A stretch of DNA of 64,000 nucleotides from Gemmatimonadota bacterium (GTDB lineage: Bacteria; Gemmatimonadota; Gemmatimonadetes; Gemmatimonadales; Gemmatimonadaceae). The position numbers were made by a program, and so were the translations under genes. Below the pieces are notes generated by a model that did no database searches, was not told the origin of the DNA, and worked only from the letters and a program-made list of their open reading frames with translations. Positions 7,045 to 9,639 of the stretch are shown here, one piece after another. The stretch is from NCBI GenBank assembly GCA_021324775.1, contig JAJPIM010000044.1:1-64000 (forward strand). The letters run 5' to 3'. Every line of letters starts with the position of its first letter. Within the stretch, counting starts at the first letter, position 1.

Positions 7045-7809
7045 TTGCGCGATCGCTCACTCCGCCAGCAGTACGACGAAGAAGTCGACCAGGCAGTCGA
7101 GCTGTATAAGGAGTCGCTCCCTCGCAATGCGATCCTGAGCATTGGTGACGAGGCGGTGGCGGCAATCCGCCAGCAAACGCAGCTCGGGTTGACCGAGCTC
7201 CTGCTGTACGAAGAAGTGAACCGGATCATCAAGCGCCGCCTGGGTATCAAGGATTATCCCGCATGGCGGCGGCGGATGCTCCGCCTGCTCAAGGAATACC
7301 GGCGCGCCGAGCATTGGGGACTGCGCCCCGAGAGTCCCCTCGTGCGCGAGATTCAACCCGATCAGGGATCGCACGTGCTCCTCGCCGGCGAGACCGCCGA
7401 GCGCGCCGCGCTGTACCTCGCCGCGAATGGTTGCGAGGTGACGACCGTCGAACTCTCGTCGGATGCGATGGAGCGTGTGATGACGGCGGCCGGCAAGGCG
7501 GGACTCATGTCGCGCGTACATGAATGGCCCACCGGTATCGGCCACTGGCGCCCAGACTGCCCGTTGAATGCGGTCGTGTGTACCCCGTCGGCATTCGCTG
7601 GACTCACGCCGGCCGAGGTGAGCAAGGTCATCGCGCTGTTCCAGGAAGCGACGATGGATGGCGGCGTACACCTGGTCGAGACGATCGTCGCTGGCCAGGA
7701 TGCGATGTCACTCGCCGAGTTACGTTCGCGTTACGTGGGTTGGGACATCAGCATCGAGCGAGACGGCAGCGCATCCCGTTCCTTCGTCGCTCGGAAAAGC
7801 GCCGCGTAG
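7045..7809 (+). CDS. Protein with a degenerate methyltransferase-like fold
   Basis: A 254-aa protein I do not recognise as a named family. The first 100 residues are helical and charged, with many Glu, Arg and Leu. The second half looks like a Rossmann SAM-methyltransferase: GSHVLLAGETAERAALYLA stands where the glycine-rich loop should be, and EVTTVELSSDAMERV matches the acidic end of strand 2. The loop lacks the usual GxGxG, so SAM binding is doubtful. The start is TTG at 7045; no better start is in frame. A separate promoter candidate lies upstream, so it is probably its own transcription unit. Confidence 0.65.
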   Translation: MRDRSLRQQYDEEVDQAVELYKESLPRNAILSIGDEAVAAIRQQTQLGLTELLLYEEVNRIIKRRLGIKDYPAWRRRMLRLLKEYRRAEHWGLRPESPLVREIQPDQGSHVLLAGETAERAALYLAANGCEVTTVELSSDAMERVMTAAGKAGLMSRVHEWPTGIGHWRPDCPLNAVVCTPSAFAGLTPAEVSKVIALFQEATMDGGVHLVETIVAGQDAMSLAELRSRYVGWDISIERDGSASRSFVARKSAA

Positions 7810-8176: not shown

Positions 8177-8242
8177 CCCCGGCGTCGCCACTCGTTGAAC
8201 TGCACTTGCCGTCCGACTAAAAGCAGTCGTCGAGCGCAGTAG

Positions 8243-8286
8243 GCGCCGTTCGGGAACCGCGGGTCGGCCTGTTCGGCCAACGGCGC
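8243..8286. repeat. Structured interspersed repeat, copy 1
   Basis: An outer stem GCGCCGTT (8243-8250) / AACGGCGC (8279-8286) encloses two small stems, ACC-GCG-GGT and GGCC-TGTTC-GGCC. A second copy at 32250-32292 keeps the outer stem and changes both bases of pairs in the inner stem. Both copies lie between convergent genes, so a bidirectional terminator or RNA-processing role is possible. Confidence 0.65.
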
Positions 8287-8310
8287 ATCTCCATCGCCAG
8301 TCGCCGAAGC

Positions 8311-8376
8311 GCGAGTCGCCGAAGGCAGTAAAGGCCGGTTGCAGCGAGTCGCCGAAGGCAGTAAAGGCCGGTTGCA
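8311..8376. repeat. Exact 33-bp tandem duplication
   Basis: Two perfect adjacent copies (8311-8343 and 8344-8376), beginning GCGAGTCGCCGAAGG, with a partial third copy (AGTCGCCGAAGC) just upstream. Each unit ends in the left arm of the hairpin at 8364-8398, so either copy of that arm could pair with the right arm. Confidence 0.9.
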
Positions 8377-8407
8377 GCACGCTGCTGCAGCCGGCCTTCG
8401 CCTTTTC
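8364..8407 (+). terminator. Strong hairpin followed by T-tract, likely terminator
   Basis: A 16-bp stem (8364-8379 with 8383-8398, one G-T pair, loop CGC) is followed by CGCCTTTTCCCC. A near-identical hairpin lies at 13029-13064 after another + gene. It probably ends the 8024 transcript and may also act on the convergent peptide gene. Confidence 0.7.
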
Positions 8408-8511
8408 CCCAGATCGTGTGTCCAGGGTCGTGATGCGGTCCTTGATGCGCGTAGCGCGCGACGACGCTCCGGTCTCCTGGAGTGCCGCCGCGCGCTATGC
8501 GGAACAGTCAG

Positions 8512-8601
8512 CTAGCGACGCGCCTTTTTCCGGCCGCCCTTCTTCGCCGACTTTCTCGCCGACTTCTTGGCGCCCTTCCTCTTGCCTTTCTTGGCTGCCA
8601 T
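8512..8601 (-). CDS. 29-aa Lys/Arg-rich peptide (histone-tail-like)
   Basis: This gene is too short for ordinary gene finding. On the minus strand an ATG at 8601 opens a 29-codon frame ending in TAG at 8512-8514. A GGAG Shine-Dalgarno lies 8 nt before the ATG (8610-8613). The peptide has 11 Lys and 5 Arg in 29 residues, the rest being almost only Ala, Gly and Ser, in a repeating pattern such as KKSARKSAKK. That composition is like the tails of histone H1-like and other DNA-compacting proteins. It most likely binds DNA or RNA, but could also be a short ribosome-associated peptide. No Asp or Glu is present. Composition plus Shine-Dalgarno make a chance frame unlikely. Confidence 0.65.
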   Translation of the reverse strand: MAAKKGKRKGAKKSARKSAKKGGRKKARR

Positions 8602-9639
8602 ACAATCAGCTCCATTGGTGGAGTGAAACACCCGGCCGATCCCCCGGTGGAGCGGCAGGCGCGGTCCCATCGGATCCGGCGTGAAGCCGGACGGATGAGA
8701 GCCGAGGATGCACGGTCGCTTCAGGACCCGTGCAGCGGAAGCGCGCGGTCATCGCGCGCGAAAGTTCATGTGTGCCGAAACCGCCGTGGCGCGTGCTCAC
8801 GATCCGGCCACGCAGGCGTCTGCGCCCGGTACCGCCGTCGTCGCGAATCCGATCGAGGCGGGGATCACGCCACTCCCGCGGAGGCGAGAGAACCAGCCAG
8901 AGCGGTGGGCGCGGGTGCGCCGTCCATCTCGCCTGACCGAAGCCGTGTTCGCGCCCTGATACCTGGTGGTGCGACACTCCGCCCTTGCGGCTGGTGAGCG
9001 GCACCATCTACGCTGGCGGCGCGAGCAATCATGCAATGCGAAAACCGTGAACTGAGATATCGGACTCGCTGTGTGACTGGTGATGCGCGAACGGACCGTC
9101 GTTGTCCGCATCGCGAATATAGGACGCACCAAAATGCATTGCAATACGTAAAAGTTGTGGAATCACGATTCATGGATGCGAATCGACGTGCGATCCCGGG
9201 GTTCAGCTCGCCGGATGCAGCGCACGCATCGCGACCCCGATCGATGCGATTGCATGCGGTCACGCGGCGAATGTACATGCCGATGGACGCATCGCGCGAT
9301 CAATCGCCCGCTGCCCGATGCACGCATCGCCGGTGCGATTTCATCGCGTTTTTCATAGGAGAATCGTGCTGCGCGCGACAACGCCGCGTGCCGGCCGATG
9401 ACGCGTCGGGCGCGGCATCGCGCCGCGCAGCGCGGCCGCGCATCCGGGTCTCGTGGCGCATCGCGGGGATCGCGGGATCATACCGGTCAGCCCCGCCTCG
9501 CGCGGCCGAACCGCACGCAGATCCGCGGTGCGGCTTGGGATGACCCTTCCCGTGTATTGCGACCCTCGCGGCGTCGCGCGGCGTCGCGCGGTGCCGTTCA
9601 TCGGCTGGCGCCGCCGGTCCCGGCGTGCGAGCTTTCGGT
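8602..9639. other. About 1 kb without a recognisable protein gene
   Basis: No frame here encodes anything with family features; the longer ones are low-complexity Arg/Ser/Pro translations. The first 400 bp may hold the promoter of the basic peptide gene. From about 9030 to 9365 the DNA is richer in A+T than its surroundings and rich in CGCATCG/CGATGCG sites and short palindromes. It may hold a non-coding RNA or the leader of tdh, since a clear intrinsic terminator closes the segment at 9640. Confidence 0.5.
9335..9353 (+). terminator. Short terminator-like hairpin
   Basis: GCGAT-TTC-ATCGC (9335-9347) is followed by GTTTTT. The stem is only 5 bp, so this is a weak candidate, but it ends the motif-rich segment. 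Confidence 0.35.

What the first reader, a model, noticed from the sequence alone, without database searches (positions are those of the whole stretch)
8512..8601. Hidden 29-residue Lys/Arg-rich peptide gene
Seen: ATG, GGAG at 8-nt spacing, 29 codons with 16 basic residues, no acidic residue, then TAG. The rest is Ala/Gly/Ser, the composition of histone-H1-like tails. Inference: a stand-alone minimal DNA- or RNA-condensing peptide, or the remnant of a longer histone-like protein. Standard gene finders would miss it.
Basis: partly seen in the sequence, partly recalled or inferred. Interest (0 to 1): 0.62.

Follow-up and report, generated by a model that had tools for sequence, protein, structure and literature searches.

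The report
Tiny lysine-rich gene with hairpin leader
A 29-amino-acid, almost purely basic peptide gene that annotation easily overlooks is real and conserved across a whole family of soil and water bacteria (Gemmatimonadaceae), always behind the same two-hairpin RNA leader, and probably makes a minimal histone-tail-like nucleic-acid-binding peptide whose translation that leader controls.

Summary
The ORF is exactly as described: 29 codons, 11 Lys + 5 Arg, no acidic residue, GGAG 8 nt before ATG, TAG stop, minus strand 8601-8512. It is a real gene: across Gemmatimonadaceae the place between a methyltransferase-like gene and threonine dehydrogenase holds a Lys/Arg-rich ORF of 14-163 aa, under purifying selection (pN/pS about 0.21).

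A covariance model finds one copy in this genome and matches in 94 of 103 sampled family genomes; all 94 copies translated run into such an ORF. In two genera a second copy precedes a SWIB-domain gene that begins with the same Lys-rich tail; there the stem differs and the loop is identical. No Rfam, Pfam or NCBIfam family matches.

Best explanation: a stand-alone, translationally controlled, H1-tail-like nucleic-acid-binding peptide. Gene and leader are shown; binding and switching are inferred. 'Remnant of a longer protein' is disfavoured: short forms are stable in most genera, long forms are confined to a few lineages.

The parts
8512..8601 (-). Coding sequence of the 29-aa Lys/Arg-rich peptide (ATG 8601-8599, TAG 8514-8512)
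   Evidence: Translation; orthologues at the same locus; pN/pS 0.21 over 14 pairs
8610..8623 (-). Shine-Dalgarno hairpin: CUCCA (8623-8619), loop CCAA (8618-8615), UGGAG (8614-8610); the SD GGAG lies in the 3' arm
   Evidence: SD pairing probability 0.97 in the window, mean 0.83 over distinct leaders against 0.61 in SD-keeping shuffles; variants CUCC/GGAG and CCUC/GAGG
8628..8662 (-). P1 hairpin of the leader with hexaloop ACCGGG (8648-8643)
   Evidence: Covariation; fold of the window's leader; covariance-model match 8673-8593, 72.3 bits
8361..8397 (-). Strong hairpin AAGGCCGG...CCGGCCUUU downstream of the gene, possible transcription terminator
   Evidence: Fold z-score -4.4; the U-run is short (UUUACU) and the terminator scan did not list it, so the role is inferred
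7045..7809 (+). Convergent neighbour: SAM-methyltransferase-like protein, the syntenic anchor (not part of the unit)
   Evidence: Alignment A1; in 163 of 179 family genomes; weak TehB-like match below cut-off

Best explanation
A genuine micro-gene with a regulatory RNA leader. Shown: a minus-strand gene encodes a 29-aa polycation, orthologous to Lys/Arg-rich proteins of 14-163 aa at the same locus across Gemmatimonadaceae; comparative data show a leader hairpin with hexaloop ACCGGG, and a second hairpin is predicted to pair the Shine-Dalgarno. Inferred: the peptide binds nucleic acid by charge, like the tail of histone H1, and helps condense or screen the nucleoid (or RNA). Translation is held down by the SD hairpin and adjusted through the ACCGGG loop, read by a trans-acting factor: perhaps the basic peptide itself (autogenous control), another protein, or RNA through the self-complementary CCGG. 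In two genera the same control sits on a SWIB-domain gene with the same tail, which points to joint control of chromatin-type proteins.
For: Synteny and orthologues; purifying selection; covariation of P1, 0 of 500 shuffles reach it; ACCGGG exact in 76 of 80 distinct leaders on 27 different stems; SD pairing above control; 94 of 103 sampled family genomes have the leader; every one of 94 translated copies leads into a basic ATG ORF, 88 without any acidic residue; SWIB genes with the same tail and loop, closing pair C-G, U-A or G-C; SWIB proteins bind bacterial DNA genome-wide (PMC6426960) and SWIB-4 with an H1 motif compacts nucleoids (PMC4154389).
Against: No transcript, protein or binding data. 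Composition alone does not separate DNA from RNA, polyphosphate or ribosome as target. Length varies tenfold, so no fixed structure is needed. The SWIB link could stem from recombination between two Lys-rich 5' ends. The energy z-score of the window's leader alone is modest. The SD hairpin's own covariation is thin (one of four pairs with changes on both sides).
Confidence: 0.6

Rival explanations
1. The peptide acts mainly on polyphosphate: it coats or tethers polyP granules, as AlgP does in Pseudomonas.
For: AlgP, a histone H1-like Lys-rich protein, localises to polyP granules and sets their spacing (PMC9239181). Gemmatimonas aurantiaca accumulates polyP (own knowledge).
Against: AlgP has an N-terminal domain and KPAA repeats that the peptide lacks. 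The SWIB partner points to the nucleoid.
Confidence: 0.13
2. It is a ribosome- or rRNA-associated mini-protein, like bTHX or the small basic proteins of some bacterial ribosomes.
For: Size, charge, single copy, family-wide presence; leaders that control ribosomal proteins are common.
Against: Low-complexity sequence and a 14-163 aa length range do not fit a fixed ribosomal site; no Pfam or NCBIfam match.
Confidence: 0.12
3. The RNA is the main product (a trans-acting small RNA with an ORF); the peptide is secondary.
For: The ACCGGG hairpin is the best conserved part; its loop holds the palindrome CCGG.
Against: pN/pS 0.21 and absence of acidic residues in 88 of 94 copies show selection on the peptide; the hairpins end at the start codon; the leader also precedes a SWIB gene.
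Confidence: 0.07
4. It is a leader peptide that senses lysine or ribosome stalling and controls a downstream gene.
For: Short, Lys-rich, next to structured RNA.
Against: No co-directional gene follows; the next gene is convergent. Orthologues of 90-163 aa are not leader peptides.
Confidence: 0.03
5. It is a decaying remnant of a longer histone-like protein.
For: Orthologues of 90-163 aa exist at the same locus.
Against: Short forms are conserved in most genera, under purifying selection, and in the sister-family outgroup; length class changes only once or twice on the tree.
Confidence: 0.05

Closest known systems
Histone H1-like AlgP / PhaF (Pseudomonas)
   Same: Lys/Ala-rich, H1-tail-like, disordered, DNA-binding tail
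   Different: AlgP carries an N-terminal domain and KPAA repeats and is 352 aa (PMC9239181); here the tail stands alone with 14-50 aa in most genera
Chlamydial histone-like Hc1/Hc2 (PF07432/PF07382)
   Same: Lys-rich, H1-like composition; Hc1 and Hc2 condense DNA
   Different: No match in Pfam even at E = 10; much shorter; Gemmatimonadaceae only
SWIB/MDM2-domain proteins with Lys-rich tail (bacterial SWIB; plastid SWIB-4)
   Same: The same MAAKKK tail and, in two genera, the same leader
   Different: The peptide has no SWIB domain; most SWIB genes, including that of this genome, lack the clear ACCGGG leader
SD-sequestering 5' leaders (autoregulated ribosomal-protein leaders, RNA thermometers, translational riboswitches)
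   Same: Shine-Dalgarno in the 3' arm of a hairpin next to the start codon
   Different: No Rfam match; extra hairpin with a fixed ACCGGG hexaloop; controls a polycationic micro-protein

Membership tests
Gemmatimonadaceae leader-plus-basic-ORF family defined here | P1 hairpin with ACCGGG loop and SD hairpin directly before the ATG | tested here: met
   R1 match 72.3 bits, E 5e-14; loop and SD hairpin read directly
Gemmatimonadaceae leader-plus-basic-ORF family defined here | Syntenic place next to the methyltransferase-like gene | tested here: met
Gemmatimonadaceae leader-plus-basic-ORF family defined here | Binds or condenses DNA or RNA | not testable with these tools
   needs synthetic peptide or in vivo work
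Chlamydial histone-like Hc1/Hc2 | Match to the Pfam profiles of the families | tested here: not met
   no Pfam match for the 29-aa or a 105-aa orthologue at E up to 10
AlgP/PhaF | N-terminal domain plus KPAA repeat tail | tested here: not met
   29-aa sequence has neither; no Pfam match
SWIB/MDM2 domain proteins | SWIB domain (PF02201) | tested here: not met
   absent from the peptide; the genome has a separate SWIB gene at C46:4576-4797
Small ribosomal proteins (bTHX and similar) | Match to curated family model | tested here: not met
   no NCBIfam or Pfam match; such short low-complexity queries are a weak test
Known structured RNA families (Rfam 15) | Gathering-score match | tested here: not met
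   none in the whole window; loose search of 8350-9000 gave only chance microRNA matches
CsrA-controlled leaders | CsrA encoded in the genome | tested here: not met
   no PF02599 match in the own genome, 98% complete

The most novel reading that the evidence does not exclude
An RNA-level regulon for chromatin-type proteins in bacteria: the ACCGGG-hexaloop hairpin marks mRNAs of polycationic tail proteins (the micro-peptide and, in some genera, a SWIB protein) for joint translational control by a dedicated trans-acting factor or by the polycation itself. It would resemble, in logic only, the stem-loop that marks histone mRNAs in animals, and its smallest products (14-15 aa) would be among the smallest conserved nucleic-acid-binding proteins.
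Probability: 0.3. Interest if true: 0.82.

Novelty: new variant of a known kind. Interest (0 to 1): 0.63.

Why it matters
It reveals a family-wide conserved protein gene, as short as 14 codons, that length and composition filters hide, and a structured mRNA leader matched by none of the Rfam families. If the control is as inferred, translational regulation of bacterial H1-like tails becomes directly testable, and nature supplies a length series (14 to 163 aa) of one orthologous polycation with which to ask how much tail is needed to condense DNA or RNA.

Tried and rejected
Rfam at loose E-value: chance microRNA matches only. A wider ACCGGG regulon in this genus: TCCACCGGGGGA occurs once per genome, only at this gene, and the covariance model has one match in the own genome at E <= 1. 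CsrA as reader of the leader: absent. A shared leader at the SWIB gene of the window's own genome: an ACCGG-containing stretch is in G000 and G002 but not in G001, so not claimed. The order-level hit G241 leads to a 28-aa ORF that is not Lys-rich and was set aside. A first methyltransferase tree gave one length change, a larger one two; one clade of long forms is not rejected (p-AU 0.15), so the number of expansions is left open. Solved-structure search: nothing significant. Promoter scan: one sigma-70-like site at 9144-9116 (minus), far upstream and near chance level, not claimed. Literature searches found no report of this gene or leader. Folding the peptide was not attempted: a low-complexity polycation gives no informative model.

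Full report
OBSERVATION. The minus-strand ORF 8601-8512 reads MAAKKGKRKGAKKSARKSAKKGGRKKARR and ends in TAG. It has 11 Lys and 5 Arg, no acidic residue, and GGAG 8 nt before the ATG. It is the only one of 702 ATG ORFs of 14-80 aa in the window with K >= 30%, K+R >= 50% and no D/E, and 30 simulated windows gave none. A longer in-frame ATG upstream (52 aa) has no support: homology and the conserved Shine-Dalgarno belong to the 29-aa start.

CONSERVATION. The genome has one copy. Both congeners keep it: G002 at 90% identity, G001 as a 30-aa version with conserved upstream DNA. The named relatives are Gemmatimonadaceae. The order methyltransferase-like gene / small basic gene on the opposite strand / threonine dehydrogenase / KBL is kept in many genera, and basic ORFs of 14 aa (MAAKKKAKKKAKKK) to over 100 aa sit at that place. 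In some genera the gap to the methyltransferase is larger, about 2.7 kb.

SELECTION. Over 14 non-overlapping pairs of short orthologues, synonymous differences are 56.5 in 193 sites and non-synonymous 46.5 in 764 sites: pN/pS about 0.21. The window against G002 gives 3.5 in 19.8 against 3.5 in 67.2. So the amino acids are kept, not only the RNA.

THE LEADER. Alignment of 36 leaders showed two hairpins. P1 has the loop ACCGGG and its stem covaries: one pair is G-C in 20, U-A in 13 and A-U in 3 sequences with none broken. Nine of ten P1 pairs have changes on both sides, 0 of 500 shuffles reach the observed covariation score, and slid versions fall far below. Among 80 distinct leaders 76 have the exact loop; their 27 distinct stems are paired at 85%, against 66% (maximum 75%) when right arms are dealt out at random. 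The second hairpin pairs CUCC (or CCUC) with the Shine-Dalgarno GGAG (GAGG) right before the ATG; pairing probability of the SD averages 0.83 against 0.61 in controls that keep the SD and shuffle the rest, and is 0.97 in the window. The fold energy of the window's leader by itself is unremarkable: the case is comparative. No Rfam family matches.

DISTRIBUTION OF THE LEADER. A covariance model (R1) finds one copy in the window's genome and matches 95 of 298 Gemmatimonadota genomes: 94 of the 103 Gemmatimonadaceae sampled and one doubtful match outside. All 94 copies that were fetched and translated (SWIB copies not counted) run directly into an ATG ORF that is Lys/Arg-rich; 88 have no acidic residue. 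A diverged leader and a 21-aa ORF MAAKKKKAAKKTAKKGGKKKK also occur at the same locus in a sister-family genome (L052), so locus and gene are probably older than the family.

SECOND COPIES. Eleven genomes of two genera (g13, g23) have a second leader, and one more shows only that copy. The eleven such copies that were examined precede a gene for MAAKKK tail plus SWIB domain. There the loop is ACCGGG in 11 of 11, while the loop-closing pair is C-G, U-A or G-C and the outer arms differ. A SWIB gene in a further genus (L314) shows GCUCG-ACCGGG-CGAGC (read by eye). The loop is what is kept, which fits a binding site. SWIB proteins bind all along bacterial DNA in Waddlia (PMC6426960), and plastid SWIB-4 with an H1 motif compacts nucleoids and complements an E. 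coli H-NS mutant (PMC4154389). This is the best functional clue, but indirect: shared control could also come from recombination between two Lys-rich 5' ends.

LENGTH. Length class (over or under 80 aa) needs one change on a first tree of the neighbour protein and two on a larger one. The outgroup is short. Long H1-like forms belong mostly to Gemmatimonas and relatives. The rooting is weak, so 'short is ancestral' is likely, not proven; 'remnant' is unlikely.

MECHANISM. Shown: coding, conservation, P1 by covariation. Predicted: SD pairing. Inferred: charge-driven binding of DNA or RNA, control through SD access, a reader of the ACCGGG loop. CsrA is not encoded in this genome. Autogenous binding by the peptide is attractive because Arg/Lys-rich peptides of this size bind RNA hairpins (lambda N and boxB, own knowledge), but untested. 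The loop holds the palindrome CCGG, so RNA-RNA pairing is another option. There is no co-directional downstream gene, so attenuation is unlikely.

NOVELTY. H1-like Lys-rich bacterial proteins are known (Hc1/Hc2, AlgP, PhaF), and so are SD-sequestering leaders. A conserved stand-alone tail of mostly 14-50 aa under an undescribed two-hairpin leader, with the same hexaloop on a SWIB gene, was not found in the libraries and open-access papers searched here; absence there is not proof of novelty.

Noticed in passing
window 8224-8378: A 33-bp tandem unit (GCGAGTCGCCGAAGGCAGTAAAGGCCGGTTGCA, 2.1 copies at 8311-8378) whose neighbourhood matches at least ten other places in the same genome (contigs C14, C37, C39, C42): a dispersed GC-rich repeat family next to the gene.
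   Followed up: no
L213-L243, upstream of SWIB genes: Ordinary SWIB genes of Gemmatimonadota share a promoter-like box TTCCCTATTG followed some 20 nt later by TACTTTG or similar (seen by eye).
   Followed up: no
L045, L070-L100, about 60 nt upstream of P1: In Gemmatimonas leaders a further hairpin (CUGCACG-CUCC-GGAG-CGUGUAG type) aligns with what reads as the 3' end of an upstream gene (…DFNFTSLSEAV stop, resembling a TldD-type protein by eye) in other genera: perhaps a gene end kept as RNA structure.
   Followed up: partly
L290, L294, L055, L052: The few leaders without the exact loop: ACCGGU twice, ACGGUG once, and a C(UUCG)G-like loop in the sister family.
   Followed up: no
window 7045-7809: The convergent neighbour is a conserved protein of 254 aa with no Pfam match and only a weak TehB-like methyltransferase match, present in 163 of 179 family genomes: an uncharacterised core protein.
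   Followed up: partly
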